A DNA stretch of 64,000 bases. Source: Voacanga thouarsii. Its lineage: Eukaryota; Streptophyta; Magnoliopsida; Gentianales; Apocynaceae. The notes beneath the pieces were generated by a model. The model was not told where the DNA came from, did not search any database, and saw nothing but the letters and a program-made list of their open reading frames with translations. Positions within the stretch are counted from its first letter, which is position 1. Every line of letters begins with the position of its first letter. Where the stretch lies: positions 1,476,501 to 1,540,500 of the forward strand of contig JANUWF010001497.1 of assembly GCA_026120185.1 (NCBI GenBank). Direction: 5' to 3'. The position numbers and the translations under genes are program-made. Of this stretch, positions 33,238-58,450 are shown piece by piece.

Positions 33238-33404
33238 ATGAGTCTTATATGGCAATATATGAAGCATGGTAGTAATAAATATGGCCAATGATTATTTGAT
33301 ATCATTTTGTGAACCTTCACTGTTTATGGTATGGGATAGATACTTTGTAAACCTCGTCGTTGAGGTATAAGAAGCTTCTGTAATTTAATACTTTCCATAG
33401 CATC

Positions 33405-35096: not shown

Positions 35097-35101
35097 GCAT
35101 C

Positions 35102-36717
35102 GTGTAAACCCGAGTTTCAATAGGTATAGGCGGTTGTTAGTTTTGTTTTAATTGATTTCGTGTTTGAAATCTGTAAACAAATGATTTTGTAAAAGCTGTG
35201 GAAGAAAATCGTAGGAAAAAACGAAAAAGATGACACTGTAGAAAGCCGAGCCATGAAACCGAGCCGTCGAAGCCGAGCTGAGTTGCATAATGTGAGAGGA
35301 GCCGAAGCCCTTCAAGCCAGCCGTGGCTTGGAGCTGTAGCCGGGCCCGAGTTGGCCTCAGCTCCATGGAGAGTGCGAGGAAGGTTTCCTCGCGAAAGCGC
35401 CTAGCTTCCTCGCAGATCATGATAGCGCGCGAGGAAGGTTTCCTTGCTTGGCTTCCTCGTGGATGCAATTTGCAATTCGAATTGCAATTGCAGCGGGTCG
35501 CGGGTGATCAAGGCTGGCGGGTCTCCAACAGGTGACAATCCAGTGTGGCAGGTTCAGTGGACCAAGGAATTTTTAGGTTTTAGGTTCCATATCAGGTGAA
35601 ATTATTATTTTTGCAATAGTTAATATTCATGAAATATTTTTGCATGAAAAATAATAATAAGATATTTAGGATTAAACAAGACCATTAATTATTTAATTAA
35701 TATATTTAATTCTATTATTTGGGCACTTAAGTTAAAAAATAGAAAAGTATGAAAATGTCTACTGTTTTCTAGCATGCTATTTATTTTGGGTACCTATGTG
35801 CACGTTTTCTCAAAGACCAAAGTCTTTGGAAATTTTTTACAAAGAAAAATATTTTTCTTAAATTAAATGGTTAATTTTAATTCGAACAAAAATTAATTCT
35901 TGATTATTTTCTCAAATGATTTTATCCTTGATATAGAAAAATATTTTAGATTTAGATATTTTTGTAAATTAAAATAGAAACCATTTTGATTTATTTTTAA
36001 CAAGAAAAATTATTTTTGTCAAATTAAACTTGAGATCAATATCTTTAGAAAGTTTTATTGGAAAATTTTGAAATTATTAAGTTTATTAACTTAAATAAAA
36101 TTATTCCATGAAAAATTTATCAAATGGTATAAACCTTAACATAGAAATTTTTATAGGTTTAGATATTTTACTTTTGAGTTAAAAGAAAACTTAATTGAAA
36201 ATTTCAAAGGATATTCTCCAAGAAAACCCTTATTTTAAAAGATTAAGTGGGAGAGGGGTTCCGACGGCCCCACGGCTTCTATCACGATCCTCATTAGAGA
36301 TTTTGGGTCTTCTCGCGTCACCCTGGGAATGAACCCGTATAGGATGGAGATACCACAAGGATCTAAAACCAATAAAATGATATAATTAATAACTCAGGAT
36401 ACGTGCTATGATCGACCAGCCCACATTGGAGGTTATAATAAGCGAAAATGAGAAGAAACGACCATCCCCTCAATAGAGTTATCTTCTAGATCATTACTTA
36501 GAAGGGAAATTAATTTGTGGTGGTTAATATACTTAGCCTAGAAAACTGTTAACCTTCCCAAGAAACTATATTAGTTCTCCTAAGAGCCAAACAAATCATA
36601 TTAAAGATAATAGTGAGAAGGTTAACTATTATCAGTTTTAATATGAGGATAAAGTACACAAATTATTTTTTATTTTTCACAAACTGAGTTTTTCTTTTAT
36701 TTTTCAATTTTTCAGAA
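35102..36717 (+). mobile_element. C2 leader with GC-rich island
   Basis: Untranslated region between primer site and gag (together with 33238-33404). The part at 35270-35530 is GC-rich and has a hairpin CGAGGAAGGTTTCCTCG (35375-35391) and a partial repeat of it near 35429. The AT-rich remainder matches the inverted C1 leader at 16451-16640. Confidence 0.65.
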
Positions 36718-37540
36718 ATGGTGGGAGGATTTTTTAGTCATTTGGCCGTTATTCTTCGTGAGAATAAGCTAACAGGTCTAAACTATATAGACTAGAAGAG
36801 GAACCTAGACATAATACTCACTACTAGGGGGTATAAGTTTATCCTCTACGAAACCTGCCCTATTATCGGGGAGGGTTCCACCGCTAATGAGCACGAGACT
36901 GAGATGGCATGAAAGAAGGCTGACGAGATGGCTCGTTGCTACATGTTAGCCTCCATGTTTAATGTGTTTCAGTCCAAACACGAACACATGACCACCATGT
37001 ATGATATTAGCACTTCGTTAGCCATGATGTTCGCTAATAAGAGTCGACCCGTAAAGCGGGAAACTCTTAGGACGTTCATCAATACTAAGATGGCTGAGGG
37101 AGTATCAGTCAGAGAGTATATGCTCAAGATGATTATTGCTTTCGAGGAAGCAGAAGTCTTAGGGGTTGTTATTGACCCCGAGAGCCAAGTAGACATGATT
37201 CTCGAATCTCTTCTGGGCTCTTTTACTCAATTTAAGTTAAATTATAATATAAACAAATTAAACATAAGTTTAATCGAGTTAATGAAAGAGTTCTAGGTAA
37301 TAGAGAAGGTCATGAAGCCACAATCCAAAACTATGATTGTTAGGGCTTCTTCTTCCAAAACTGGGTCCAAGCCCAAAAAGTTCAAAAAGAAAAAGGAAAA
37401 TGCACCGGCCTAGCCCAAGAACCAACCCAATAAGCCCAAGAGTAAGTGCTTCAAGTGCGGCCAGAAGGGACACTGGAAAAATGAGTGTCCAGAACTTCAA
37501 GCCAAGAAAATCCCTACAGGTATTGTTCTCTATCTAAAGT
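36718..37540 (+). pseudogene. C2 gag
   Basis: From ATGGTGGGAGGATTTTTTAG in one frame: LRENKLTGLNYI, then a stop for Trp (36793), KRNLDIILTTRGYK, a second stop for Trp (36910), KKADEMARCYMLASMFNVFQ, VREYMLKMIIAFEEAEVLG, the usual Angela/Tork gag series. After a stop at 37294 a basic stretch leads to the zinc knuckle CFKCGQKGHWKNEC (37449-37490). Particle protein; dead copy. Confidence 0.88.
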
Positions 37541-37960
37541 CAGTTTCAATGGTTGGATCAACTTCTACTTGGATTGTTGATTCTAGAGCCACTGATTATA
37601 TCTGTAACTCATTGCAGGGTTTAGGAAGAAAAGAAAACTCCAGAAGGACGAACATGGACTACGAGTAGGAAATGGAGCACAAGTGTAGGCCCTTGCAGTA
37701 GGAGAGCTGGATCTTATTTTTTATTGTAATAGAGTAATTATTTTGAAGGATATTTTATATGTACCTGAATTTAAACAGAATTTGGTTTCAGTTGCAAAAT
37801 GTATAAATTGGGGATATTCTATTTTTTTTTCATTTTGGTATTACTATCTCTTTATTCTGGGCACATGTATGAAAATTTATTCTTCTTAAATCTTATAAAT
37901 AATCAAATAAATAATGCTCAATTTGAACCTTTAAGTAAGAAGAGAAATACCAATGTCAAT
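37541..37960 (+). pseudogene. C2 protease and pre-integrase region
   Basis: STWIVDSRATDYICNSLQGF holds the aspartic protease motif, normally DSGAT; the catalytic Gly is Arg here (AGA), so it is inactive. Then ILYVPEFKQNLVSVAKC, the typical sequence before integrase, and a frameshift near 37800. Confidence 0.8.
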
Positions 37961-38770
37961 AACTCATATCTTAGGCATCTAAGGTTGGGTCATATTAACT
38001 CAACTAGGATTCAGAGGTTAATCCATGATGGGTCATTGGGCTCATTAAGATTGAAAAGTTGGCCTCAGTATGAATCTTGCCTTATGGGAAAAAGGACCAA
38101 AAGGTCGTTCACCCAAAAGGTTAATAGAGCCAATGAGATATTAGGCCTTATTCACACTGATATGTGTGGTCCTTTGTCTACACCAGCTAGAGTGGATTTT
38201 GAGTACTTCATCACTTTCATGGATAATTGTATAAGGTTTGGTTATATCTACCTGATGAGACACAAGTCTGACTCTTTTGACAAGTTCAAAGAGTTTAATG
38301 CTGAAGTGAAGCGTCGGACAGGTAAACTAATCAAAACCTTATGATCGGATCGTGGTGGAAAGTACCTATTCGGTGAATTCAAGGATTACATGGTATATCA
38401 TAAGATAGTAGCTGAGAGAAAGAACAGGACATTGATGGACATGGTCCAAAGCATGATGTCTCATGCTATTCTTCTGATCTCTTTTTTGGGATATGCCTTG
38501 GAAACAATGGCATACATCCTAAATTTGGTGTCTTCCAAGTCAGTACCTAGGACGCCATATGAGATGTGGACTGGGTGTAAGCTAAGTTTGAATCATCTCA
38601 GAATATGGGGTTGTCCAACTTACATACTGATAAAGAGAAACAAGTTAGAACCAAGATCAGAATTATGTTATTTTGTTAGGTATTCAAAAGGGACAAAATG
38701 ATGTTACTTTTATCATCCCAATGAGCAGAAAGTACTGATAAGTACCAATACTAGATACTTGGAGGGTGAT
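37961..38770 (+). pseudogene. C2 integrase
   Basis: SYLRHLRLGHINSTRIQRL carries the two zinc-binding His; the Cys pair is reduced (YESC, first Cys to Tyr). The core has IHTDMCGP (first catalytic Asp) and SDRGGKY (second Asp, after a stop at 38342). A deletion of roughly 15-20 codons follows before VAERKNRTLMDMVQSMMSHA, which keeps the catalytic Glu. The end is TPYEMWTGCKLSLNHLRIWG. It would insert the DNA copy into the genome; here broken. Confidence 0.85.
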
Positions 38771-39611
38771 TAAAGTACTTCCACTGAAGGTTCAACAAGG
38801 TTGGAACTCGAGAAAAAGTTATCTTGGAATCAATTTCTTCTGACTCGATTGTGGAATAGGAAGAGGCACAGTCTCAAGAACCTATACAAACGGAGCCTCG
38901 TCATAGTAGGAGGGTATCTAGGGTTCCAGAAAGATGGATTGGGGAGGCTTTCAAGTTGGTCTCTGACCATCAGGAATAAGATTCCACTAGATACAAAGAG
39001 ACTATTACCAATGCTGATTTAGACCTATGGCATGAAACAATGAAAGCCGAGATTGAGTCTATGTACTTCAATCAGGTTTAGGATCTTGTAGCTTCACTTG
39101 AAGGGATAAAACCCATTGGGTGTAAGTGGGTATACAAGAGAAAGAGGGGAGCGGATGGGAAGGTGGAAACCTTCAAAGCTAAGCTTATGGCGAAAGGGTA
39201 TACTCAGAAAGAGGGAATTGACTATAAAGAAACCTTTTTCCCGATAGCCATGCTTAAGTCCATCCGTGTCCTCTTTATCATCACATATCATTAGGACTAC
39301 GAGATATGGCAAATGGATGTCAAGACGACTTTTCTTAATGGCCATCTTAGCGAAGACATCTATATGTCCCAACCGAAAGGCTTTATTGCTAAAGGCCAGG
39401 AACATATAGTTTGCAAGCTTAAAAAGTCCATTTATGGACTTAAGTAGGCATCTAGAGTATGGAACATTAGTTTTGACAAGACTGTAAAGTCTTATGGTTT
39501 CATTCAAAATGAGGATAAACCATGATGTACAAGAAATTGAAAGGCATAATGTGATTTTTCTTGTCCTATATGTAGATGACATTCTACTAATTGAAAATGA
39601 TGTAGGAACAT
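38771..39611 (+). pseudogene. C2 reverse transcriptase, part before S2
   Basis: After a connector (38771-39090) comes [38 protein letters not shown], then [20 protein letters not shown] (catalytic Asp). In a shifted frame YVDDILLIEND is present (about 39570-39605) just before S2. Stops and frame changes are scattered through it. Confidence 0.85.
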
Positions 39612-41983
39612 TGTAACACCCCACTACCTAGGCCCACCAAGGCCGGGGATGTCGCCCCGTCCAAAGGACAAGGGGTCTTTATAACTAGGTCACACAAATA
39701 AAAATTGCGGAATAAAAATAATACTTGAACTTAAATTTTATTACATCCCAAAAATAAATCCAATAAATCCATGAATAAATTCAAGAATACCCAAAACAAA
39801 TCCATAATAACATTCATCCACCCTCATCTTCCCCGAAACATTACACAAAATAAATTATCAGAAAATCTTCCAAAGTAGGCAATATCAAGCTACTCACCCC
39901 TACAGCAGGACCGACCTGAAATCATGGTAAAAATGGTGGTGAGATAGAAATCTCAGTAAGTCCGTGTGTGTTTAACTGTCGGGTGAAAACAGTTCGTGAA
40001 TGCAAAATATAAAATTCTTTATAAGAGATCACTGGCAAGCAATAAACATCCGTCAAAAGCAAGAGTGGTGTTTTGGCTTTTCCAGCCATACATAATTTAG
40101 AAAATCAACTACTCAAAAGAAAGGATTACGGGTTACCACACGTTGGGCCCCATAACCGAATGGTCAGCATGCCACACTTTGTGCATACCGCCGGTCAGAA
40201 TGCCACACTTTGTGCAGACTGACAAAAGTAGGTGATCGGCCTACTGGGCAAGATACTCCTCCTTCTCTATACCCAAACAACAACCGGGTGTCCATTCCGA
40301 CAAAATACAGTCACTTGACTGAAAAGAACACTGCTAGCTCGGACTGGCATGACCCACTGGACTGACGTCCTATCCAGGAAGGACTCACCCCTCAGAGGTG
40401 GCCACCTACTGAGAGACTTACCCTAACCCCTCAAAGACTAACCCTAGTAGTCCACCCTTATTGAGTACTCAACGTAACGTATCCCACTTGGGAAAAATGA
40501 ACAAACACAGTTCCACTTGAACATGGTAATTAAGGGTTTCTGAAATCTTTGTCAAAAACAGTTTCAGAAAAAGTTCTGAGTTTGAGTAAATCTGCTTATT
40601 AAATTTCAAATAACTCATCTAACGGAAATAAAATAGGAGACAACCCTCAATTGCCTTTACAAAAATGAGTGTCCATGCACTCTACATTTGGCTTGCCATA
40701 ATTAAACATTTTTCAACAATCAGGTTTTTATGCAGGAGCTTACCTGATTCTTGCTCACAATAAAGAGGTCCCCAACAGCTGACCTAACCCCACATGGCAA
40801 ATACAAATCACAATCAATTTCAAGCCACAATCCACTTCCTTAATTTTAAATCAACTCAACTTGCTACTACCATGATCCTAGTGTCCCGAGCTTTAAGGCC
40901 AAATAATAAATAAATAGGTTTATAGGTTGAGCCTAATCTAATATTTAAAATAACTAATGGTTTGGGAAATAAATTCCAAGATATTGAAAGTTTAAATCTT
41001 GCTAAGAAAAATTTAGAGTTTATTTGATCAAGAGTCCTAAGTGGTTATTAGGGAAAATAATGAGTTATTAATAATTTAGTTGTTAGAAAATAACTGATAA
41101 CCAAAGTTAGTTGAAAATGAATTTTAATGAGTCTTGCTTGGAAAATAATAAATAAGTTTTAATAGGCTTTGATTAAAAGATAATAATTAAATTTATAATA
41201 AGTAGTTTACTAATTATGATTATTTCCATAAAAGGCTTTAGTTGATTTCATTATTTTATAAAATATCTATATATTTTATTTTTCTATTAAAACTTTTATT
41301 TATTTGACTAAATTATCCTTTATATAAATATAATATTCCAAATCCACCCTTCTTAGGGTTTTTCAAAATCACTAGCAAAATTATATTATTAAATATTTTA
41401 TTCATGAAATAAAAATTTGCTTAGGGACAACTAGATCATGATCATATTTCCATGGTTATTCACAATCATGAACATATACAACCCTTCAATTCATCAAATC
41501 ATGCATACAAGTATAGATATCAATTTATTAAGACATGATCTAACCCCTACTAGCATAAATATGATCATGGTTTCAAAAATCCAACATGCATATAAATCCT
41601 ATTCATCAAAGGTGGCATAATTTCTAGCATACTTTATCACAAATACCTCCTATGACATGCATCAAACCTCATCATCATACTATCAACTAAGATAATCCTT
41701 CCATGCATAAATCCTATCTCCTTCACAATCATATATATATTCATACTTCAATCTCAACAATACATACTCAAACCCTATCATAATCCACCTTCTAACAACA
41801 ACATCCTAGAGACATGAATCTAGGATTTAAAAGAAAGATTGAAAGCACTTACTTGGTTGATGAATGCTTTGAAGGAGTTTAGAATGGATCTCAACTCCTA
41901 GATGCCTAAATTTGTCCAAGAAAGATGGAGATAGCATGACCATGGAAGATGAAGCCATCTGGCCAAGAGAGAGAGTTTTGGCC

Positions 41984-42017
<34 letters not shown>

Positions 42018-43959
42018 AATAGACCATTAGCATGTTTATTCACATATATTCTCACTTAAGATCAAAATTGGAGAAGATGAAGTTGTTAGAATAATCCTAC
42101 CTTGAAGGTGTTCTTGAACCTTCACAGAATTTTTTGGTTTTGATCCGAAGTAGCGAATTGATTTGTGGGGTTTGATGTTAAGAATGGTGTTGATGGACTC
42201 ACGGCAGTGAGTAGGTCAAATCTGGAGATTTTAGAGAAGGTTTGAAGTGGATTGGAGGGGTATTAGGTGAAAGGAAGAAGTAGGTGTTCTTGGTGTAGTG
42301 TGTGTGTTCTTGAAGGTTGAAGGAATTTGAGAGATTGTGTTGTGCAGCTGCCGAAATTCTGAGAGAATTAGGGCTGCCGAATTTTCTGTAGGGTTTAAGA
42401 GGTTGGTTCTCTGATTTGGAAGGGAAAAGGAAAGGCTAGTTGTTAAAATCCTTGAAGAATATTTTTAGGAAGTAAATTTGGAAACTAAATATGCTAGAAT
42501 ATCTTGATTGTTGGAGAGCTTTGGAAGTCTGTCATGGCTGACTGCTTTGAGCAGAATTTCAGTGGAATTAATGCTGGTTTAAGGAAGCTTATGGTGGCTG
42601 AAAATAGGGAGCATAATGGTGAAGAAGAAGTCTGGTTATTTGAGGGATACATTATGGAAAGTTGCTACACTATGGTGGCTGGAATTTTGGAAATCCATCA
42701 AGCATAATTGTAGGGATTTGTTGGAGAGATTTTCGGGCAGCCATGTCTGAATTTCGTGCAGAAGCTTAAGGGGAATAATGGAGCTATGTTACTGAAGGTT
42801 TAAGGAAGGTTTATGCAGAACAATGATGGTGTTTCGGCTGGAGGAAGATTAGGAAACAAAGCTGGACAATTGGACTACACAGATTTCGCTAGGCTGGAAT
42901 TTCTGGACAGCTTTTTCGGCTGCCATTTTCCAGCCATCTTGCAGTGAGTTTGAAGGGGAATTTTAGGGGTGTTCAAAGCTGGTTTCCAGACTTCTTCATG
43001 GAGGAAAAACTTGGCTAAAGTGCTCAATAAAATCTGAAAGAAAACAGCTTGATTTTGGACTCTTAAAGTTGCGATTTGTACAGGATTTTTTCCTGGTTTT
43101 GCTCCAGCTTTGAGTAGTCCGGAAATGGCTAAAGAATTCAGGTTGCAAGCTGATCCAAAAGACCATTTTTCTGGCAGCATTTGGGAGGGAATTCTAGCTA
43201 AGAAACTCGACACCTTAAAGGTACAATAAGTTGGAAAATTTCAGTTCATTCCAAGAAGGAAGATGAACTAGCTAGAGTGAATTTTCAGCAAGCTCACTAG
43301 AGGAATTTTTCCTCTTGGAATCTCTCACAACTCTTTCACATTTTCAAGCCATAAGAAGTCTTTTACTAAGACATTTTGATCCTACAAGACCACAGTACTT
43401 TACTGAAATTTCTGGAAAGAAAATGACTAGAACAACTTGATCACACTAATGAGTTGAGAACTAAGGAAAAATCAAAGATCAAGGAAAAATGAATTCCTCT
43501 TAGAAAATTCGAGTAGGGCAAGGAAGTAGAATGAGGATACTCCTAACATGTCTCTCTTAGGACATCATCACTCCCTACTCTAAGCATGTAAGGCCGAAAT
43601 TATTACTTCCCAAGCAAAAATAAAATTTAACCAAGCTAAAGCTCCTATGATGGAGTTTGAACCCAAGACCTTAAGAATTAATTTTCAAAGCTCTAACCAC
43701 TACACCACAACAACTCTTGTTGTTATTTTCACTAGCAACTTATTTCCTATTCAATCCTCAAGCTATCTCCCTATTTTCACCTCAGGCAAAAATTACCATT
43801 TTGCCCTTCTCACTCAATATTCACTAACAAGCCTCCAAGACATTAAAACTCAAATCCAAGGCACATAAAATCAAATAAAAATATATTTAATCATGCAATA
43901 AAGTATGTTATGCATCCCAACCCCCTTACTCTAAGGTTGGTTTTGACTGGGATTTCACA
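39612..43959 (+). mobile_element. S2: 4.3-kb solo LTR
   Basis: TGTAACACCCCACTACC to GGGATTTCACA, 4348 bp, with a perfect duplication AACAT (39607-39611, 43960-43964), in the C2 reverse transcriptase. Collinear with S1; it has a private tandem duplication of a GCCACACTTTGTGCA unit at about 40163-40216. A GA tract lies at about 41985-42014 and a tRNA-like module at 43648-43713. Confidence 0.92.
43648..43713 (-). other. tRNA-like A-box/B-box module in S2
   Basis: Minus strand: TAGTGGTTAGAGC (A box, 43690-43702) and GGGTTCAAACTCC (B box, 43652-43664), the best B-box match of the three copies. Same position in the LTR as in S1 and S3. Confidence 0.62.
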
Positions 43960-43964
43960 AACAT

Positions 43965-44911
43965 TGTTATCTACTAAGGTTTAGATGTCTAGTCAATTCA
44001 GTATGAAGGACTTGGGAAAAGCCAATTACATTCTCAAAATTAAGCTTCTTAAAAATAGGAAGTAGAAAATATTAGGATTATCCCAAGCGACATACATTGA
44101 CAAAATGCTGGCTAAGTTCACCATGGACTCATGCAAGGGAGCTCTAATCCCTTGTAGACATGGGTTGTCTTAATATTCTAAAGACTGTCCTAAGTCTCAA
44201 GAGAAAAAAAAACAAAATGAATAGGGTTCCCTACGCTTCGACTATGGGAAGTCTCATGTACGCTATGTTGTATACTAGACCAGATATCTACTTTGCTATA
44301 AGCTTAGTTAGTAAATATCAGTCAAACCCTTGGGAGGTTCATTAGCAAGCTGTAAAGCATATTTATTCTCAAGTACCTCAAGAGAACGAAAGATTATATG
44401 CTAGTTTACAAGGCTGATGACTTACTTCCTACAGGATACACAGACTCAGACTTCCAAGCGCATAAGGATGAGGGTTAATCCACTAGTAGATATATCTTCA
44501 CCTTGTCTGGAGGAACTATTTCATAGAAGAGTATTAAGCAATCTTGCATTGCTATCTCAACCATGGAAGCTGAGTATGTGGCAGTTTCGGAAGCATCCAA
44601 GGAAGCAGTCTAGCTCTGGAAGTTCCTTTCAGAACTTGGAGTCGTGCCACACATGGACAGACTAATTGTGGTGTACTGCGACAATACTAAAGCAGTCTCG
44701 CAATCCAAAGAACCCAGAAACCACAAGAAGGGGAGGCACATCAAAAGGAAGTACCACTTGATCCGAGATTTTATCTAGAGACAGAAAATCGTGATAGAAT
44801 AGATAGCCTCGAAGAACAACCTAGTAGATCCCTTCACTAAGCCTTTGACTGCGAGAGTCTTCAAGAGACACTTAGACACCATAGGGATGGACACCTACGG
44901 ACTTTCTTAGT
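43965..44911 (+). pseudogene. C2 reverse transcriptase end and RNase H
   Basis: Continues after S2 with FSMKDLGKANYILKIKLL, YIDKMLAKFTMDSCKGALIP, then RNase H: MEAEYVAVSEASKEAV, YCDNTKAVSQSKEPRNHKKG. Stops at 44524 and 44611 sit at Trp positions (ISW, AVW). It ends with DPFTKPLTARVFKRHLDTIG and a stop near 44909. Confidence 0.85.
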
Positions 44912-44915
44912 TTTA

Positions 44916-44932
44916 GAGTGTAAGTGGGAGAT
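44916..44932 (+). other. C2 polypurine tract
   Basis: GAGTGTAAGTGGGAGAT directly before the 3' LTR; primer for plus-strand DNA. Confidence 0.85.
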
Positions 44933-46830
44933 TGTTGGAATGTATATCCTCTAACTTAAGTTTTTTATGTAATTATCGAATTAATTAATAAAAGAATTTA
45001 TTCTCAAAATTATTTGTGAATTTTACATTACTTTTGTGCATGATTTCGTTTGGAAAAGACCCATTGTGTTTAAGTAAGTGATCCGTGTGAATAATGGTCT
45101 TTCACAGTAAGATATGGATCGCGAGTTACTTAATACATAAACATTTATTCTTAACCGATTGATGAGAATGAAAATCTCACCATGTTTAGGTTATTGTGTT
45201 ATGAATTTCAAATGAGGAATGGCTTACCTTTAGCCAGTGAGCAGTTCACTCACTTCATAGCATAAGCGTATTTCGAATATGTAGAACAGGACCTGTAATA
45301 GTGATTTCTAAAAGTACTATTTGGTAGAAACCTAGACTACTACTGCTACAGCGTGGACTAATACTCTACGGCTTGAGTATTAGTTAGTGGTCTGACGGAG
45401 CTAGAAGTATAGACTTTGATATGTTGTGATTGAAATTCTATCATAGAGCCGATATACTTGTATATTGGGTATATGTGACCAATTAGTTAAGACAAAATTG
45501 CACAAGATAGCTTCTATACAATATCGTATTTTGTGACTGTTCAAATGATTTAAATATCCAGGGCTCTGAGGAACATGACTTGGATGTTTACTTTAGGGTA
45601 GCTCCCTTGGAAAGCGAAAACATTCTAGGAAGTCCTGGATCATTAAATTAGAGGTTTAAGAATGGTATATGTCTTTTAAAGAGATGTTAGTACACTCTTC
45701 TCCTCTAAATGTATGGTGATGTGTAGAGGGATATTTTAGTCATTATACCTATAGGTCGGAGACTTTGCTAACGCAGCATTGTTCTCGGGGTCAGTATTTC
45801 CTTATGGTGATATTAGAAAATATTTAAAATACAAAATACTGTTATTTCTATAACATGGATATTTTGGTCATTTTAATAGTTAAGGCGATGTGTCTTTTGG
45901 CCTCTGGAATAGTCCATAAGTGCTGGTGGATTTGGGTGAAGGATTTAGTCTTGGATAAAATGGATTTTATTTTATTTGAGTAGCCTACTTTATTTATTGG
46001 ATTGGAATAAAATAAAAGGTCCAAAAAGAGAGTATTTATTAGCCTATTAGGGTTATTTAATTAATTTAATTATTGGACTTGTATTAGTCTAGAAATAATT
46101 AAATGAAATTAAAGGCTAAACCCAATGAACTAGGCCAAGGCTTGAGGTTTATATTGGTCCATTAAGTTATTTAATTAATTTAATTATTGGACTTGTTTCC
46201 GTCCAAAAAATAATTAAATTAAATTAAAAGGCTTAACCCAATGAATTGGGCCATTAGTCCAAAGGTTTGTTTAATGGCTTAAACATGACGTGGGCCTTAA
46301 GATTTCTGTTTGATTTTTGAATGCCCGGATAATAACATATCATTAAGGTTGTTGGGATAAAGAAGGGACAATAGAGGTTCACTAAAGTACATTCTTGTTT
46401 TTCCTCCAGAAGCCTCACGTTCTCTTCTCTCTCTCGTGTGTTCTCTGTGTTGTGAAAAACAACAAGAACAGAGACGCAAAACTCACCTGATTAATGCTTG
46501 GTAGCATTCTATCAGAGTAGGAAGATCATCCTTTTGATCCATAGCTATCACTAGGCGATTCAGGCAGTGGATATATTTTAGAAGCCCAAAGTCTTAGCGT
46601 TGATGAGACAAAGACAAAGGATGCAGGACAGCAACTAGAATTATCGACCAGAAGGGAACCAGAGACTTCTAGCATTTAGCAAGAAGTGGTCCAAACATCT
46701 TCTTCAAAGCCAACAAAGTCATTTAAACGCAGAGGTATTAAAATTTTAGAAGCTCTTCCACTACTATTGTTTCTGCATTTTTGTCTGTCTTGCATGCTTC
46801 TGTGATTTATTTTGCCGTACTACACCTTCA
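44933..46830 (+). mobile_element. C2 3' LTR
   Basis: TGTTGGAATGTATATCCTC to TACTACACCTTCA, 1898 bp, collinear with 31355-33223. Confidence 0.92.
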
Positions 46831-46835: not shown

Positions 46836-47074
46836 ACCACAGGAAGTGAAGTAGGATACTCTATTAAGGAAATTGAATTAGTCAGTTTTCTTGCAAGTAA
46901 AGGAGTAAAAGTACTACCAGGAAAATTAATAAGTAGCAAAGAGTACATAGAATCAACCTGGAATATTAGTAATATACTTGTAGAGCCCTAAATTATACCA
47001 ACTCGAGCTGAATATTATATAGATAATCAAGGAAATGTAAGTGTAAGATTCACAAATTACATTGAGCATCAATA
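46836..47074 (+). pseudogene. EPRV movement protein, C-terminal part
   Basis: Resumes the frame broken at 31354: GSEVGYSIKEIELVSFLASK, GKLISSKEYIESTWNISNIL, one stop, then NVSVRFTNYIEHQ and TAG at 47072-47074. Its end fits the end of a 30K-type movement protein. The 79-residue ORF starts 8 bases later. Confidence 0.75.
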
Positions 47075-47082
47075 GTCAGAAG

Positions 47083-47322
47083 ATGAGCAAGAATAATATT
47101 CAACAAGCCTTATTCCATCTTAATCAGATAAGCAGAGAAGATTTAAGTGCAATCTCTAAATTTAGAGCTAAACTAGTATATTATGTAGAAACAAGTAAGA
47201 ATAAAGACATGTTTAAACTAATAGATAGTTGGTTGTCACAAAATGAACAAATTCTTTATGAAAAGTATCATAGGGAATGGAAACAGACTCTGGTAGGATT
47301 AGGAGATCCACAATATGAATAG
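47083..47322 (+). CDS. EPRV 79-residue ORF of unknown function
   Basis: ATGAGCAAGAATAATATTCA; open to TAG at 47320. Residues include SREDLSAISKFRAKLVYYVE and MFKLIDSWLSQNEQILYEKY. Mainly helical and charged, without Cys or membrane segment. An in-frame TTG at 47062 overlaps the movement-protein stop, but I prefer the ATG. Its last 8 bases (ATGAATAG) contain the dUTPase start. It could correspond to the small virion-associated or accessory ORFs of caulimovirids; I do not recognise it. It is one of the few undamaged viral frames here. Confidence 0.6.
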   Translation: MSKNNIQQALFHLNQISREDLSAISKFRAKLVYYVETSKNKDMFKLIDSWLSQNEQILYEKYHREWKQTLVGLGDPQYE

Positions 47323-47732
47323 ACGATTTCATATTCTTAACCCAGAAGCAGAGCTTCCAGAAAGAGTGACTATTGGAAGTGTTGGATATGATATTTGCAT
47401 CCCCATAACTGTAATAATTAATCCTTTATCAACATTAAAAATTGATACAGGAATAGGTACAAAAATGGAATTGGATGAAGTCTTCCTAATAGCGCCTAGA
47501 TCATCCTTACATGAAAAGGGTCTAAGTCTAGCAAATACTGTAGGAATAATAGATGTTGATTACAAAGGTTAATTAAAACTTGTAATTAAAAATCATAAAT
47601 TTCATCCTGTTCAAATACTAAAAAGAGAAAAAATAGTGCAAGGCATTTTCCTTAAGTATTTAACGGTAATAGATGAAGTAACAACCCCCTATATTTAGAA
47701 GATCAGGATCTTTTGGGAGTACTTCAACATGA
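47315..47732 (+). pseudogene. EPRV dUTPase
   Basis: All five dUTPase motifs are recognisable in order: 1, SVGYDI (about residue 24); 2, APRSSL; 3, GIIDVDYKG; 4, KREKIVQGIF; 5, RSGSFGSTST at the C-terminus. The enzyme turns dUTP into dUMP, keeping uracil out of new DNA. Length of about 138 codons matches trimeric dUTPases. Two breaks: TAA at 47570 just after motif 3, and a one-base shift at the CCCCC run (about 47685) before motif 5. The ATG overlaps the previous ORF by 8 bases, and the TGA overlaps the coat-protein ATG (ATGA, 47729-47732). A host gene capture is unlikely because introns are absent and viral ORFs flank it on both sides. Confidence 0.85.
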
Positions 47733-48120
47733 GTTCTTATTACTGTGTAGAATATGAACCTTATGAAATTTAGATTCCGTGTATCCAAATTATGATTGGA
47801 CACAACATTTTAAGGAAAAACCTAAATTAGATATAGCAAATTTTTACCTCAGAGTGCAAGGCATTCATATGGTTTAACCAAAATTTCCTCAGAGTAGACA
47901 AGAAAGTGTATTGGAGCCAATAATTAGTTTAGATGATTCAAAAAATATAGATAATACAAATTTTAAAAATTGGATCAATATGAACCCTAGTACAAGTGGG
48001 ACGACACAAATAGATGAAAGTCCAAGTTATGGTGTACCATCCTCAAGAACTACACAGTTACCTAGAAGAGAACCTTCTAGAATTGAACCAACTAGTGATG
48101 GAGGAAAAATTTACAAGTTT

Positions 48121-48154
<34 letters not shown>

Positions 48155-48600
48155 ACTACCAGATGCTCTTGCAAATATTTATAATTTACCACCTCAAAAT
48201 AAAGGAGGAAGTACTTTAATTCTGTCATCATTTCACCCACAGAAATGGCCCGAAGTAATTGATAGATGGGAAGCTGATGCATTAAATGTATTAGAAAGGG
48301 TAAATTTTAATATGACGACAAAACAAGTAGTAGGTTTCATAAAAATCTTTTAGGAAATATGAAAAATTATTTTATTGATTGGAGGACAAAATACCCAAAG
48401 TCCTATAAACAATTGTTGGATCTTGATGAAAATCCCCATAATATAACCAGCCAGATCAGACAAATAATTTTAGGATATGATCCTTATAGAAGTCAAACAA
48501 AGCTCCAATATCAAGCTATAAAAGATCTTGAAACTTTACAAGTAGATCCAAAATTATTAGATCTAGCATGCTGCTGAACAAAAGTTCTATCAGCCAAGTC
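47729..48600 (+). pseudogene. EPRV coat-protein ORF, N-terminal half
   Basis: Starts MSSYYCVEYEPYE; the same start is seen at 55945 on the minus strand in better shape. After frame changes: SVLEPIISLDDSKNIDNTNF, a Ser/Thr/Pro-rich stretch, the TA array at 48124-48153, then GLPDALANIYNLPPQNKGG, WPEVIDRWEADALNVLERV, FIDWRTKYPKSYKQLLDLDE and ASN-rich helices to about 48580. Acidic, low-complexity N-terminus plus helical core fits a caulimovirid capsid precursor. At about 48600 it is joined to minus-strand fragments. Confidence 0.65.
48124..48153. repeat. TA dinucleotide microsatellite in EPRV coat ORF
   Basis: About 15 TA units between the low-complexity part and the capsid core. TA arrays have been reported at EPRV insertions in other plants, so it may mark a join of two viral pieces or a later expansion. 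Confidence 0.92.
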
Positions 48601-51728: not shown

Positions 51729-52480
51729 TTAGCTATAATTTGGGATATATTCTTTACACCAATTTAATAATCCTAAAAAAGATCTTAGAGATGTAATATC
51801 ATTATCTCTAATTTCTTTCTCTGCTATGGCTTTTGCAAAGTGTTCCTGTAGTTTAATTTGACCTTTGCCTATAACTATTCCTAAAACTTCTATTTGGGGT
51901 TTACCAATAGACATTTTCTTTTTTGATAAAACCAACCCATTTCTAATACATTCATCAAAAAATATTTTTAAATGTTTGATGTGTTCATTTCTACTTTGAC
52001 TAAAAACTAAGATATCGTCAATATAGCAGACTATAAATGGATATTTTTTGAATATTTTATCCATTTTTCTCTGAAATACAGAGGGAGTATTTTTCAAGCC
52101 AAAAGCCATGACTAGCCATTCATAGTGTCCATTAGGTATAGTAAATGCAGCTAAGGGATACTATAAATAACGCTACCTTTTATTCTTTGAATTAGCAGAT
52201 CCTTGTTAGGGATTATGTAGCTATCTGCTCTAGTATTGTCATTTAACCTTTTGTAGTTAAAGACCATTCTACTCTTTCCTATGACTATGACTATTTCACT
52301 ATGTTTCCTTACGATAAAAGTAGGAGTTCTATGAGGACTATTACTATTTCTAAATATCTTAAGATCTAAAAGTTCTTTGATGTACATATTAACTTCTTCT
52401 AGATCTTTTGGAGTATAGATCATTGGTTTATTCTTTATAATTAACTCAGTGTTAATTATAACTGATTTACAAAGAATTTT
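51729..52480 (-). pseudogene. EPRV reverse transcriptase
   Basis: Minus strand: KPMIYTPKDLEEVNMYIKEL, PHRTPTFIVRKHSEIV, GKSRMVFNYKRLNDNT, then after a join MAFGLKNTPSVFQRKMDKIF, VCYIDDILVFSQSRNEHIKH (YIDD catalytic pair near 52010), LGIVIGKGQIKLQEHFAKAI and SLRSFLGLLNWCKEYIPNY. About 20 codons with the first catalytic Asp (the DxKxGFWQ part) are deleted near 52165, followed by a stop. The rearranged copy at 55256-55670 still carries the GFWQ part. It copies pregenomic RNA to DNA. Confidence 0.88.
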
Positions 52481-53100
52481 ATTTTTATTCTAATGTTCTA
52501 TAGGATTTTCTCCAATTATCTTAATAGCTTCTAATTTTGATAGAACTTGCTCAATTTCTACCTGATTATGTAATATTCCCAAATTGAAATTTACTGCATT
52601 GTATTCTGGGATTAAATTAACTACTTCATTGTATATATTTCCAAATTCTTCTATCATAGAATCTGAAGCTACAAATTCATCATCCACCACTCTTTTCTGC
52701 GTTATTTCTGATGCTAAAGAATTTAGTTCTCTGGAATAAGGTGAGCTACGAATTGTATCAACCCTTTTAAAGAAAGTTACCTTATTTCCCTCTACTATTA
52801 TTCCACCATGAAGATTTTTGATAAAATTCATGCCTATGATTAACTGATAATTCATGGAAGATATCCATGTAGTTGGTAGGTAATATTTCTCTGTATTAAA
52901 TTTAATTGCGTAGTCTACCAATCTATCATCTAATTTTCTGACGTTTCCAATGATATCAATTACATTTGTTCCTGTGTCAGATTTAATCTTATACTTGCAC
53001 AAGGTCTTGATGTATGTGAGACATTGTTGCACCAGTATCTATAATTGCTGACAATGTAATTGTATATTTGTCAGGAAATTCTATTGTGCATATAGTATTT
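52481..53100 (-). pseudogene. EPRV aspartic protease and linker
   Basis: Minus strand: the IIDTGAT-type start near 53040 is broken by a frameshift; then VIDIIGNVRKLDDRLVDYAI, SSMNYQLIIGMNFIKNLHGG (the IIGMNF pattern matches the second conserved protease block) and a linker NLIPEYNAVNFNLGILHNQV to IIGENPIEH. One clean 180-codon stretch at 52490-53032. It cuts the viral polyprotein. Confidence 0.8.
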
Positions 53101-53664
53101 AACAGATTATTTGACATGTACTTCCCTATGGTCAAATTTTCTAAATTTTTTGTAGGGGTAAGAATAGATTCTAAGCTATTTTGTTCTTCTATTCTTATTC
53201 CTTTTTGTTTTCTGTCTTTATTTTTACAGATACAATCTCTAAGACTTTCCTCGAGATTATCTATATATTTCTATAAAATTTCTATTGTCTTAAGGTGAGT
53301 ATGTACCTATTGCTTTAATGTGACTTCAGGTATTTCTTCAACCTTTTGTTCTATTTTATGATTCATATCATAACTAAATTGGCTATTTGCATAGAATCTA
53401 CAAACTGCTAAATAGCAAGTTGTGCAATATGTTCTGTGTTTTTCTACTAGAAATTTAAGACAAATTTTACATCTATCTTTTAATTTTGTGAAATCTTTCC
53501 AAATATGTTGACATCTATTAAATTTGTCAAAACTTACCTTATACTTATTTTGAAGGAATGTTGGGTTATTATCTAAATTCCAGTCTTGTTCATTCATATT
53601 TAAAAGAGTCATATCTTCAAAATCTTTTAATCTATCTATCATGTGAAAAACACTGAAGTAACTC
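53101..53664 (-). pseudogene. EPRV coat-protein C-terminal region, second Cys box
   Basis: Minus strand: SVFHMIDRLKDFEDMTLLNM, NPTFLQNKYKVSFDKFNRCQ, then CKICLKFLVEKHRTYCTTCY and LAVCRFY. This is the CX2CX11CX2CX4CX2C box known from badnaviruses, with the last Cys changed to Tyr here; the 54168-55030 copy keeps all six. A coiled-coil-like stretch and CICKNKD lead into the protease. Confidence 0.85.
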
Positions 53665-53745
53665 ATTGGTTTATCCTTTATAATTAATTCAGTGTTAATT
53701 ATATCTAATTTACAAAGAATTTTATTTTTATTCCAATGTTCTGTA
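53665..53745 (-). pseudogene. EPRV scrap: N-terminal RT sequence
   Basis: TTTACAAAGAATTTTATTTT and the surrounding 80 bases match 52430-52500. It separates two coat-protein pieces that are not adjacent in the inferred genome. Confidence 0.7.
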
Positions 53746-54064
53746 CATAAAACATGGGAGTATAAATATTTTTACAATAATTGTAATTTTTAATTTGTCT
53801 ATCTATCTCCTTTTGTATACATTGTTCCTTGAGATAGTTAAACAAGAATTGAATTCTACTAGTAATGCCTACCGCTGGTCTATTACCAACAGATTCCATC
53901 CATTTTTCATTAACTAATTTTCCTAAAGGATTAGGTAGCTTAGCAAAAAAAATTTCACTAAGTTCTATCTTTTCTTTCAAATTACCAGAAAAATAAATCT
54001 CAAGTTTATTAGATACTATTTTTCTACTAAAGAAAGCTCACACTATAGGGTTAAGGCTGCCTCT
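53746..54064 (-). pseudogene. EPRV coat-protein core
   Basis: Minus strand: KEKIELSEIFFAKLPNPLGK, LVNEKWMESVGNRPAVGITS, RIQFLFNYLKEQCIQKEIDR, QIKNYNYCKNIYTPMFY. The pattern fits the capsid core of caulimovirids. Overlaps in content with 48701-48960. Confidence 0.7.
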
Positions 54065-54167: not shown

Positions 54168-55030
54168 AATTCTACTGTACATATAGTATTCAAAAGATCA
54201 TTTGACCTGTACTTCCCTATGGTCAAATTTTCTAAATTTTCAGTAGGGGTAAGAATAGATTCTAAGCTATTTGTTCTTCTATTCTTATTCCTTCTATTTT
54301 CTATCTTTATTTTTACATATACAATCTCTAAGACTTTTCTCAAGATTATCTATATATTTCTGTAAAATTTCTATTGTCTTAAGGTGAGTATTTACTTGTT
54401 GCTTTAATGTGACTTCAGGTATTTCTTCAACCTTTTGTTCTATTTTATGATTCATATCATAACTAAATTGGCTATTTGCACAGAATCTGCAAACTGCTAA
54501 ATAGCAAGTTGTGCAATGTGTTCTGTGTTTTTCTACTAGAAATTTAAGACAAATTTCACATCAATCTTTTAATTTTGTGAAATCTTTCCAAGTATGTTGA
54601 CATCTATTAAATTTGTCAAAACTTACCTTATACTTATTTTGAAGGAATGTTAGGTTATTATCTAAATTCTAGTCTTGTTCTTTCATATTTAAAAGACTCA
54701 TATCTTCAAAATCTTTTAGTCTATCTATCATGTCAGTAACACTAAAGTAACTCATAATGTCACTATCATTACCTTTTTCATCTCCATCTAATGATACAAT
54801 ATTATATGCAGGACGTTCTGTACCATAGAATAGGTATGTATTAATTTCAAGAGATTTATACAAATTTAGCCTATCTCTCTTGACATTTTTATTTTTGCAT
54901 TGGTATGCAAAATGACCTAATTCTCCACAAACATAACATTTATATTTCTTTGGAGGCTTGTAAGTTTTAAATTTTTTGACCTGATTTTTCATTGGTCTAC
55001 CCTTTTTACCTAAAGCAGTAGGAATATTCA
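54168..55030 (-). pseudogene. EPRV coat-protein C-terminal region with both Cys boxes
   Basis: Minus strand from 55030: a basic stretch KKGRPMKNQVKKFKTYKPPK, zinc knuckle CYVCGELGHFAYQC (CX2CX4HX4C), TERPAYNIVSLDGDEKGND, DMIDRLKDFEDMSLLNMKEQ, a stop, then the second box CEICLKFLVEKHRTHCTTCY with LAVCRFC, all six Cys kept. These nucleic-acid-binding boxes package or chaperone viral RNA/DNA. It ends near 54168, before the protease motif. Confidence 0.85.
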
Positions 55031-55255
55031 CTAAGGAAAATACTAAATATAGCGATCCAGTATCACCTGTTGATCAATTAATGATTAGACAGAATAATGT
55101 AATAAAAATTCTATTATTAAATATTTTGGAAAAGTTAGAACAACCCATTCCAAATAATCCTGAAATAACATCAAAATTCAATGACATAAGTGATGTTATT
55201 AAAAGATTAAATTTAGATCCAAGCAAGATAGCAAAGAAACCAAAATCTACTAATC
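55031..55255 (+). pseudogene. EPRV ORF upstream of movement protein, inverted fragment
   Basis: Plus strand: DQLMIRQNNVIKILLLNILE, KLEQPIPNNPEITSKFNDIS, IKRLNLDPSKIAKKPKSTNP. Same gene as 30291-30540, in plus orientation between two minus-strand pieces. The right join falls in CTAATCCTAAAAAAGATCTT, which also occurs in the reverse transcriptase at 51768-51786. Confidence 0.7.
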
Positions 55256-55670
55256 CTAAAAAAGATCTTGGAAATGTAATATCATTATCTCTAATTTCTT
55301 TCTCTACTATGGCTTTTGCAAAGTGTTCTTGTAGTTTAATTTGACCTTTGCCTATAACTATTCCTAAAAATTCTATTTGGGATTCACCAATAGACATTTT
55401 CTTTTTTGATAAAACCAACCTATTATTAATACATTCATCAAAAAAAAAATTTAAATGTTTGATATGTTCATTTCTGCTTTGACTAAAAACTAAGATATCG
55501 TCAATATAGCAGACTATAAATGGATATTTTTTGAATATATGATCCATTTTTCTCTAAAATACAGAGGGAGCATTTTCCAAGCCAAAGGGCATGACTAGTC
55601 ATTCATAGTGTCCATTAGGTATAGTAAATGCAGTCCAAGGGATACTATCTTCTTTCATGGCTATTTGCCA
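55256..55670 (-). pseudogene. EPRV reverse transcriptase, second copy
   Basis: Minus strand: GFWQIAMKEDSIPW, then MDHIFKKYPFIVCYIDDILV, SQSRNEHIKHLNFFFDECIN, LGIVIGKGQIKLQEHFAKAI, SFLGL, then the join at 55255. It keeps the GFWQ block that 51729-52480 has lost. Confidence 0.85.
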
Positions 55671-55945
55671 AAAGCCAAGTATTTATAGGTTTCCTAGACA
55701 CTATGAAGATTTTTTATGAAATGCAGGCCTATGATTAACTGATAATTCATGGAAGGCTCCAATACACTTTCTTGTCTACTCTGAGGAAATTTCGGATAAA
55801 CCACATGAATGCCTTGCACTATAAGGTAAAAATCTACTTCATCTAATTTAGATTTTTCCTCAAAATGTTGTGTGCAATCATAACTTGGATACACAGAATC
55901 TAAAGTTTCATGAGGTTCATATTCTACATAGTAATAAGAACTCAT
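55671..55945 (-). pseudogene. EPRV coat-protein N-terminus fused to protease scrap
   Basis: Minus strand from ATG 55945: MSSYYYVEYEPHETLDSVYP, a clean reading to QSRQESVLEP, then an abrupt in-frame join to MNYQLIIGLHFIKNLHSV, which belongs to the protease (52820-52870). About 55665-55700 resembles the movement-protein part at 31115-31150 in inverted form. The 83-codon open frame is therefore a deletion fusion, not a natural gene. Confidence 0.75.
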
Positions 55946-55958
55946 GTTGAAGTACTCC
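55946..55958 (-). pseudogene. EPRV dUTPase tail, cut by Gy3
   Basis: Minus strand ending AGTACTTCAACATGAG, as at 47716-47732. Gy3 is inserted at 55959, so the rest of this second dUTPase copy should lie beyond the window. Confidence 0.7.
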
Positions 55959-57490
55959 TGATAGGGCCTAAATTAGTCATGCTTTTCCTAATTATTTGAG
56001 GTTCTTTTATGATAAATTTTATTCAATAACTAGTCATATTCCTTCATATTTGAGATTTTACCCTTGGAAAGGTACTTTGTTCATTATTATAGATTTTTGG
56101 AGTAAAACGAAGCAAAAACGTCGCAAAACAGAATAGAGGCGGCGCCAGCCAGGACAGAGGAACTGGCGCTGGCCATATGCTGATGACATGAACTTCGAGA
56201 CGACGAAAAATTGTTAAACCAAGACCGGAACAAAATGGAACCGGCACCGGCTCCAATAGCTAAGGCAGCACCGGCTGCACTCTGGACAACATTGTGCGAA
56301 ATTCGAAAAAAATAGAAGAACGACTAGAAAAACAGAACACAATCGGCGCCGACTCCAAGAGCCAAAGCAGCGCCGACTGTGCTCTAAGGAAAAGGCGGGA
56401 TTGTAATTTTTCTACGTGGTTTTTGGTAATCTATGGAGTTTTAGTATCTTCCAACTTCTACTCGACCAAGAACATTACACCAACGAGTTTAGACATTTCC
56501 CAAGCCTATAAAAAGACGGAAAACACAAGGAAAAAGGGGAGAATTCATTGATCACCATAGAAAATCACTCAAATAAAATGAGGAATTCTTCAATTCAAAG
56601 AGGGTTGTGTAAGAAGGTCTTCAAAGGAAGAAGAAGAAGGCTTGTCTATGAGTGCTTTCTTTTACTTTGTTTTCTTTTTCTTGAACAATGATGTATTAAT
56701 TATTTTATTGTAATTCGACATTGTTTTAAGTATTCATGACTTTTAGAGTTATTTGATCTTTTGATTAATTGATTGTTCTTCTTGGTATTTAATTACTTGG
56801 GCATATTACGAAGTTAATTGATTATTTCTTTTCATTAGCTTGCTAGACCAAAGTGGTTGCAATTGATTAATTTCATATTTATTGGCTATTAATTTGCTAG
56901 ACCAAAGAGGTTAATTGCTGATGATTAAGTAATTAAAAGTTAATTGATGTCTGTTAGACCAAGGATTCATTGATTAATTTCATATTTTAAGTTTTCCAGG
57001 AATGGAAATTCAATCAAATGATTGTGTTTAATGCATCTTTTGGGTAAGACTGGTTAAGACAGGCATGTGATGCTAAGTTATCTAGAAGATAGGGATTCAT
57101 GGATTGGAAAAGAAGTGAGTCTACTTTAATCATTCATGATGCCAAGAGAATGATTAGTTATGATAATGATTAGGTACTTTAAGATCATGTTTGTCGAAAT
57201 AATGGCTTGAGTTACATAATTTTCCATCCTTGACATGTATATATTTTTATTTTATTTTATTTTTCTTTTTATTTTATTTTTTCACTTTGTTGAGTCGATT
57301 AAATAATGAAAGAAAAGTGATTAATACATACTTGTTTCTTGAGGATCAACACTTATTTGAACCCTATGCTATGTTAATGATGAGTACGCTTGCTCATATG
57401 TGTAATTTTGGGTTTAACGTTTTAATGTAAATTTGATTGGGAATGTACTTAGTTTTTATATGATTTTTATACGCAAATTCATATGCATCA
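55959..57490 (+). mobile_element. Gy3 5' LTR
   Basis: TGATAGGGCCTAAATTAG to CATATGCATCA, 1532 bp. A TATA box TATAAAAA sits at 56507-56514. A GC-rich cluster at 56135-56385 repeats GGCGCCG-type words, including two copies of a ~45-base unit about 100 bases apart (56239, 56339). Confidence 0.92.
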
Positions 57491-57496
57491 AGTTTC

Positions 57497-57514
57497 TGGC
57501 GCCGTTGCTGGGGA
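57497..57514 (+). other. Gy3 primer site for tRNA-Asp
   Basis: TGGCGCCGTTGCTGGGGA; complement of the plant tRNA-Asp 3' end with one mismatch. It is the usual primer of Athila-like elements. Confidence 0.9.
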
Positions 57515-57743
57515 ATAATATCATGAAAGCTTGAATTTTGTTGAATTAACCCTGTAAATATGTAAATATGTATACTTGTTCTTTCCGCAAAAAGATTTTA
57601 TCTTTTGTATCTTGTGTAATATGTGTATACCTTTGTAACCTAACTTACTAACTTTGACTATATCCTCTTGACTAACTTTGTAAGCTTTTCCTTTGGTTGT
57701 AATCATGAATTCCGTATCTAACTCACTTCTATGTTCAGGAGAA

Positions 57744-58450
57744 ATGGCGAATTGGAATCATAGGAAGTCTAATGAGGGACAGTACCTCCATTGCACTCCT
57801 AAGATGACACTCACAGCACCAGAATCAACAGAACTCGAAACCGTAATTGGAAAATTTACTGTTCATGTCATGAGGCATTTCAAGGAAATCGATTCCATAT
57901 TTGAGAAATTCGAAGCAATGATCTGCAACATGGAACGACAAATGTGGTTTTTGACGGACATGGTGATAAAATCTCACGAACTAACCCCAATAGCCAGTGA
58001 GGAAACAGCTGCTGTCACATTGCGAAGTGGAAAAGAATTGCTAGACATTCCAGATGACAACTGGCACTGGTTGGAAGAAGAGAACCGGCGCCGGCTATCT
58101 GGTAAACCTAAAATAGAGCAGCACAGAACCAAATCGGCTCCGGCTGAAGCACTAGAACCGGCGCCGGCTATCCCCTGTACATCTCCCGAAAATCCTACTT
58201 TTCAGCCTGGAATACCATATCCTACTCGATTACACAAAGCACGAGAAGATGCTCAATTCAACAAATTCCTTGAGGTATTTAAATAACTGCACATAAACAT
58301 CCCACTCAGTGAAGCTTTAATTCACATGCCCAAATACGCCAAATTCCTTAAAAGCATGCTCGTCAACAAAAAGCGATTGGAAGAGTTGTCCACAGTGGTC
58401 CTAAACGAAGAATGCTCAACCATATTGCAAGACAAACCGAAATTACCACG
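57744..58450 (+). pseudogene. Gy3 gag remnant, capsid core deleted
   Basis: Start chosen at ATGGCGAATTGGAATC because AGGAGA(A/G)ATGG matches the Gy2 gag start. After about 30 residues it goes straight to ETVIGKFTVHVMRHFKEIDS and EAMICNMERQMWFLTDM, which is the C-terminal coiled coil of Gy2 gag; the core of roughly 300 residues and the zinc motif are absent. Then AAVTLRSGKELLDIP, the Athila-like gag-pro hallmark, a Pro/Ala-rich part encoded by GGCGCCGG words, a stop at 58284, and HINIPLSEALIHMPKYAKFL. Frameshift near 58470. Confidence 0.8.

What the first reader, a model, noticed from the sequence alone, without database searches (positions are those of the whole stretch)
47315..47732. A dUTPase gene inside an endogenous plant pararetrovirus
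Seen: five dUTPase-like motifs in order (SVGYDI, APRSSL, GIIDVDYKG, KREKIVQGIF, RSGSFGSTST) between a 30K-type movement protein and a coat-protein ORF, with no introns and with start/stop overlaps on both sides. Known: dUTPases were acquired independently by some retroviruses, poxviruses and herpesviruses; they are not a standard caulimovirid module as far as I know. Inferred: this lineage guarded its reverse-transcribed DNA against uracil in non-dividing cells. A second copy probably exists just beyond Gy3, since its tail is at 55946-55958.
Basis: partly seen in the sequence, partly recalled or inferred. Interest (0 to 1): 0.88.

Follow-up and report, generated by a model that had tools for sequence, protein, structure and literature searches.

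The report
Decayed dUTPase gene in plant pararetrovirus
A plant chromosome carries the broken remains of an old DNA virus that had its own uracil-guarding enzyme (dUTPase); the enzyme is real, a few living relatives of the virus are already reported to have one, and here it looks like a separate gene rather than part of a long fused protein.

Summary
The dUTPase is real. The open piece 47315-47569 passes Pfam's cut-off for PF00692 (39.6 bits, cut-off 22). After an in-frame stop the next piece continues the same profile, and motif 5 follows in another frame, so this is a pseudogene. It is not a copy of the plant's own gene: four Arabidopsis-type chains form a 100%-supported clade without it. 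It lies in a compact row of overlapping ORFs tied to a scrambled caulimovirid insertion with RT, coat-protein and CCHC profiles.

What looks new is a dUTPase that appears as its own ORF, and in an endogenous virus. The "movement protein" neighbour got no profile support, and a small unknown ORF lies between. Guarding viral DNA from uracil is the likeliest function, but is inferred. Limits: the host genome could not be searched (13 busy errors), no badnaviral dUTPase sequence was at hand, and most of the gene is seen in one copy.

The parts
47315..47732 (+). dUTPase pseudogene: motifs 1-3 in 47315-47569, stop at 47570-47572, motif 4 in 47573-47695, motif 5 in the +1 frame ending with TGA 47730-47732
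47083..47322 (+). small ORF of unknown kind whose stop overlaps the dUTPase start by 8 nt
   Evidence: ORF and overlap; no Pfam family above cut-off:
46836..47075 (+).
30525..31354 (+). 5' pieces of that upstream ORF, on the other side of the Copia-like element (no profile or database hit)
47729..48574 (+). broken ORF starting with the ATG that overlaps the dUTPase stop; coat-protein N-terminal part by position only
   Evidence: no profile hit in three pieces:
55755..55958 (-). second copy of the dUTPase end / next-ORF junction; 17 shared bases of the dUTPase end at 55942-55958, next ORF open for 64 codons up to where the copies stop matching
53708..53980 (-). caulimovirid coat-protein domain (PF22909, 67.6 bits)
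54672..55031 (-). CCHC zinc knuckle (PF00098, 26.6 bits)
53310..53666 (-). Cys-rich piece; a second copy at 54399-54755
52493..53032 (-). protease-region piece (PF21024, 16.6 bits, below cut-off 28.2)
51729..52106 (-). reverse transcriptase fragment (PF00078, 63.4 bits)
55077..55547 (-). second reverse transcriptase fragment (PF00078, 44.7 bits)
31355..46830 (+). Copia-like LTR element inserted into the viral upstream ORF (LTRs 31355-33223 and 44933-46830, 86% identical; target repeat AAATC at 31350-31354 and 46831-46835)
   Evidence: Copia type read from the printed sequence, no profile run
55959..64000 (+). Gypsy-like element whose first LTR begins at 55959 where the second dUTPase copy ends; second LTR begins at 63725 and leaves the window
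   Evidence: Gypsy type read from the printed ORFs, no profile run

Best explanation
47315-47732 is the decayed remnant of a trimeric-type dUTPase gene of an endogenous plant pararetrovirus (Caulimoviridae). In the living virus it was most likely a separate ORF in a compact row of ORFs, translated as its own small enzyme. It would have hydrolysed dUTP to dUMP and pyrophosphate, so that the viral reverse transcriptase put little uracil into viral DNA, sparing that DNA from uracil excision and breakage in cells where host dUTPase is low. Shown: the dUTPase homology, its decay, its non-plant type, and its physical link to caulimovirid fragments. Inferred: catalysis, trimer formation, the benefit to the virus, and that the separate ORF was the ancestral state.
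For: Matches to PF00692 above cut-off and to PHROG 135, and to three NCBIfam dUTPase models below their whole-protein cut-offs, far above shuffled controls. All five motifs in order, with the Asp and Tyr of motif 3 kept. Link to the virus: the dUTPase end, the overlapping ATG and the next ORF occur in two copies, 90% identical over 215 columns; in the second copy a protease-like piece (55756-55700) and an RT-like stretch (55586-55242) follow at once, in a cluster with PF00078, PF22909 and CCHC hits. Start/stop overlaps on both sides, and the TGA/ATG overlap is the same in both copies. Non-plant type: BLASTP 42-67 bits to the 13 bacterial, phage and unnamed dUTPases in the set against 29-32 bits to four eukaryote-type chains, which form a clade at 100% without the window sequence. 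Precedent: badnaviral dUTPase domains.
Against: This copy is broken and cannot act today. The upstream neighbour is not identified by any profile and the downstream one is coat protein by position only. Most of the dUTPase is seen in one copy, so its 5' boundary could be a product of decay from a fused polyprotein. No genus placement was possible. The motif-4 piece alone hit no dUTPase in Pfam or the PDB. In the passages read, PMC5649073 calls the domain unstudied for CYVBV, so no caulimovirid dUTPase function was seen in print.
Confidence: 0.75

Rival explanations
1. The dUTPase was a domain of one long polyprotein, as in the reported badnaviruses, and the separate-ORF look comes from decay.
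For: Reported caulimovirid dUTPases are ORF3 domains in CYVBV and PYMoV. This copy has several breaks, and motifs 1-4 are in the same frame as the downstream ATG.
Against: Motif 5 ends in a TGA overlapping the next ATG in both copies, and in the second copy that next ORF is open from its ATG for 64 codons up to where the copies stop matching. The upstream stop also overlaps the dUTPase ATG.
Confidence: 0.25
2. The viral dUTPase served mainly a non-catalytic role, such as interfering with host defence signalling, as proposed for some animal-virus dUTPases.
For: The review PMC8961515 (passages) describes viral dUTPases, the CAEV enzyme among them, that alter immune signalling.
Against: The metal and nucleotide motifs 1-5, with the motif-3 Asp and Tyr, are recognisable here, which suggests selection for catalysis until the gene died.
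Confidence: 0.12
3. A retrocopy of the plant's own dUTPase gene that landed beside viral DNA.
For: It lacks introns and lies in a plant chromosome rich in retroelements.
Against: The four eukaryote-type chains form a clade at 100% without it and share a two-residue gap before motif 3 that it lacks. Its end and the next viral-type ORF recur together in two copies.
Confidence: 0.02
4. Chance neighbourhood: a dUTPase from another element or organism was inserted next to the viral fragments and is not part of the virus.
For: The region is scrambled and full of nested elements. Fungal LTR retrotransposons carry dUTPases (PMC2864245 passages).
Against: Exact start/stop overlaps on both sides and the same dUTPase-end/next-ORF junction in two copies that differ by 10%.
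Confidence: 0.05

Closest known systems
Trimeric dUTPase domain of badnaviruses (Piper yellow mottle virus, Cacao yellow vein banding virus, Dioscorea bacilliform virus)
   Same: A caulimovirid-borne trimeric-type dUTPase. For PYMoV the review lists movement, dUTPase, zinc finger, protease, RT, RNase H, which fits the position here (PMC9963457 passage).
   Different: In CYVBV (between zinc finger and protease, PMC5649073 passages) and PYMoV it is part of the ORF3 polyprotein; the passage does not say where it lies in the Dioscorea virus. Here it looks like its own ORF, and it is endogenous and decayed. Sequences could not be compared.
Retroviral dUTPases (betaretroviruses, non-primate lentiviruses, murine ERV-L)
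   Same: A reverse-transcribing element with a trimeric-type dUTPase; at least three separate acquisitions are described (PMC8961515 passages).
   Different: Located in pro or pol or after integrase, in animal viruses; here outside the RT gene and in a plant virus.
dUTPase-bearing fungal Gypsy LTR retrotransposons
   Same: dUTPase in a reverse-transcribing element, at varying places, apparently gained independently (PMC2864245 passages).
   Different: Fungal elements with the domain in Pol; no caulimovirid coat protein.
Free-standing bacterial and phage dUTPases
   Same: Closest in sequence here: 45% over 84 residues to a Lactococcus phage enzyme.
   Different: Cellular or phage genes; no link to an RT element. 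The donor is not identified (weak support around the window branch).

Membership tests
Trimeric dUTPase (PF00692) | Profile match above the curated cut-off | tested here: met
   39.6 bits, cut-off 22
Trimeric dUTPase (PF00692) | Five motifs in order | tested here: met
   Motifs 1-4 in one frame across a stop, motif 5 in the +1 frame
Trimeric dUTPase (PF00692) | Intact reading frame | tested here: not met
   In-frame stop and a frame change; it is a pseudogene
Trimeric dUTPase (PF00692) | Homotrimer, dUTP hydrolysis | not testable with these tools
   Structure model of the open piece unusable, pLDDT 35.3
Caulimoviridae | Reverse transcriptase | tested here: met
   PF00078 in two fragments, 63.4 and 44.7 bits
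Caulimoviridae | Caulimovirid coat-protein domain and CCHC knuckle | tested here: met
   PF22909 67.6 bits, PF00098 26.6 bits, in the linked minus-strand cluster
Caulimoviridae | Retropepsin-type protease | tested here: inconclusive
   PF21024 E=0.014, 16.6 bits, cut-off 28.2
Caulimoviridae | 30K movement protein | tested here: inconclusive
   No movement-protein hit in the pieces at 30525-31304 (E<=1) or 46806-47072 (E<=10); longest piece had no relative among 77 candidates. The pieces are 27-138 aa fragments of a split, decayed ORF
Badnavirus | dUTPase, where reported with its place, inside the ORF3 polyprotein | tested here: not met
   Separate ORF with overlapping stop and start; decay of the 5' side not excluded. 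So not filed as a badnavirus
Badnavirus | Second Cys-rich motif CX2CX11CX2CX4CX2C after the CCHC (pattern recalled, from no call) | tested here: inconclusive
   Read in the copy at 54399-54755; last Cys replaced in the copy at 53310-53666. Its occurrence in other genera was not tested
Badnavirus / Yendovirus | RT placement in a family tree | not tested
   No named caulimovirid RT sequences were found in the collections

The most novel reading that the evidence does not exclude
An extinct or unseen caulimovirid lineage carried dUTPase as a free-standing gene in front of its coat gene, taken from a bacterial or phage-type source independently of the badnaviral ORF3 domain. If so, pararetroviruses acquired dUTPase more than once, as retroviruses did.
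Probability: 0.25. Interest if true: 0.62.

Novelty: new variant of a known kind. Interest (0 to 1): 0.42.

Why it matters
Retroviruses and large DNA viruses repeatedly picked up dUTPase. If caulimovirids did so too, and in more than one arrangement, uracil in reverse-transcribed DNA would be a pressure shared by the reverse-transcribing elements of plants and animals. The endogenous copy also gives a minimum age: it was in the germline before the Copia-like element, whose LTRs differ at 12% of 1866 aligned sites, about 5 million years at a recalled rate of 1.3e-8 per site per year. It also warns that a dUTPase found beside caulimovirid RT in a plant transcript may be viral rather than plant.

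Tried and rejected
Host retrocopy: rejected by BLASTP scores and the tree; one caveat is that the four eukaryote-type chains were used from the conserved stretch only, without the first 13 or so query residues. In a phmmer search of whole PDB chains, 4oop was not among the best 60 of 70 matches listed, while 3so2, of the same group, matched at 25.4 bits and E=1.2e-4. Relatives in IMG/VR: dUTPase piece, 42 stretches, none confirmed; RT piece, 15 stretches, none confirmed; RT DNA pattern, two contigs, against which 13 window pieces gave no tblastn match below E=0.1. Database proteins: dUTPase piece, 2 of 6 candidates, both unnamed (only proteins of 0.55-1.75 times the query length are candidates, so viral polyproteins could not appear); RT piece, 35 of 38 candidates; upstream-ORF piece, 0 of 77. 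Structure prediction of the open 85-residue piece gave pLDDT 35.3, so no fold search was run. A second dUTPase remnant elsewhere in the window: none found beyond the short tail. Motif-4 piece against the PDB: one match at E=1.4, not a dUTPase. Host genome search: not completed.

Full report
What is there. The frame starting at 47315 is open to 47569 and holds motifs 1-3 of trimeric dUTPases. It passes the curated cut-off of PF00692 (39.6 bits against 22), matches PHROG 135 at 81.6 bits, and matches TIGR00576 and two equivalog dUTPase models below their whole-protein cut-offs, as a partial protein would. A TAA follows; the next piece in the same frame continues the PHROG profile where the first left off (positions 234-270 after 148-231, E=0.0054). 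Pfam and PDB searches with that second piece alone found no dUTPase. Motif 5 lies in the +1 frame and ends in a TGA at 47730-47732. A profile from 17 other dUTPases scored the two pieces at 83.1 and 19.6 bits, against at most 9.5 in 50 residue shuffles of all 1961 six-frame pieces. The gene is real, and it is dead.

Type of enzyme. In a tree of 18 sequences over 86 columns, four chains (4oop, 5f9k, 3so2 and shrimp 7dlv; the organism of 4oop, Arabidopsis, is recalled) form a clade with 100% support, and the window sequence is outside it. All four have a two-residue gap before motif 3 that the window lacks. BLASTP bits were 66.6 to a Lactococcus phage enzyme (42-67 over the 13 bacterial, phage and unnamed sequences) and 29-32 to the four chains, 30.0 to 4oop. 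In tblastn, 920 phage records and 50 plasmid records matched, none at 60% identity or more. The 11 bacterial and phage sequences in the tree were picked from those hits and two more are the unnamed P0001 and P0002, so the nearest neighbour (weak support) does not name a donor; only the exclusion from the plant-type clade is informative. No badnaviral dUTPase was available for the tree.

Neighbourhood. The ORF order on the plus strand is: upstream ORF ending at 47075; small ORF (ATG 47083, stop 47320-47322); dUTPase (ATG 47315); next ORF (ATG 47729). The small ORF's stop overlaps the dUTPase start by 8 nt, and the dUTPase stop overlaps the next start by 4 nt. It is split by a Copia-like element, 31355-46830, with 86% identical LTRs and the target repeat AAATC on both sides; its 5' pieces are at 30525-31304. 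No piece of it hit a movement-protein profile, and its longest piece found no relative among 77 candidates, so that name stays unproven. The downstream ORF had no profile hit in the three pieces tested.

Viral identity. The minus-strand cluster 51.7-55.95 kb gives RT (two fragments), caulimovirid coat protein and CCHC hits, and a weak A3B protease hit. The last 17 nt of the dUTPase/ATG junction and the following ORF recur there at 55942-55958 and below, 90% identical over 215 aligned columns, followed at once by protease-like and RT-like pieces (55756-55700 and 55586-55242). This ties the dUTPase end to the caulimovirid cluster. That copy stops at 55958, where an LTR begins; a second copy of that LTR begins at 63725 and runs out of the window. 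The RT fragment has 35 relatives among 38 candidates; the four that carry a source name are plant proteins (two from Shorea laevis, one each from Rubroshorea leprosula and Tanacetum coccineum), with 54% identity over 99% of the query for the best hit. Genus placement was not possible; a recalled badnavirus-type second Cys motif is complete in one of two copies.

Separate gene or domain. Both copies share the stop overlapping the next ATG, which favours a separate ORF at the 3' side. The 5' side rests on one broken copy.

What is known. Ten literature searches were run. Passages of PMC5649073 report a trimeric dUTPase domain in ORF3 of CYVBV, between zinc finger and protease, and name PYMoV and Dioscorea bacilliform virus as further carriers. 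A passage of PMC9963457 lists it in PYMoV ORF III after the movement domain. Of the papers on endogenous caulimovirids, PMC13308828 and PMC9794742 do not contain 'dutp' in the main text and PMC4241990 has 'dUTPase' once, about a lentivirus; PMC5766536 was not probed for the word. A table passage of PMC8346255 lists an Agave tequilana co-transcript with 'Trimeric dUTP diphosphatases' and RT, RH among virus-plant co-transcripts. Searches pairing dUTPase or dUTP with pararetrovirus, Caulimoviridae and badnavirus showed me no report of a separate caulimovirid dUTPase ORF; I read passages only, supplements were not searched, and most subscription papers are not held.

Mechanism. dUTPase is essential in Arabidopsis and protects DNA against uracil incorporation (PMC3082524, abstract and passages). 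In potato tubers the host dUTPase gene is linked to DNA synthesis and cell division and used to time dormancy release (PMC11822407 passages). A pararetrovirus copying its DNA in cells with little host dUTPase would gain from its own. The same idea is voiced for fungal LTR elements (PMC2864245 passage). This is inference by analogy; nothing here tests it.

Verdict. A real but decayed viral dUTPase, in a virus family where the domain is already on record in three badnaviruses. What appears new is the separate-ORF arrangement and the endogenous setting.

Noticed in passing
window 31355-46830: A Copia-like element with 86% identical LTRs and AAATC target repeats sits inside the viral upstream ORF, giving a minimum age for the viral insertion.
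   Followed up: yes
window 55959-64000: A Gypsy-like element begins exactly where the second dUTPase copy ends; a second copy of its LTR starts at 63725 and leaves the window.
   Followed up: partly
window 28830-30530: Another scrambled set of caulimovirid fragments, matching the Cys-rich, protease-region and second RT-ORF pieces of the 51.7-55.9 kb cluster.
   Followed up: partly
window 49827-50489, minus strand: Two ORFs (120 and 89 aa) downstream of the RT region without a Pfam hit; possibly a further viral ORF.
   Followed up: partly
PMC8346255 table passage: An Agave tequilana transcript with caulimovirid RT, RH and a 'Trimeric dUTP diphosphatases' domain is listed as a virus-plant co-transcript; that dUTPase could be viral.
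   Followed up: no
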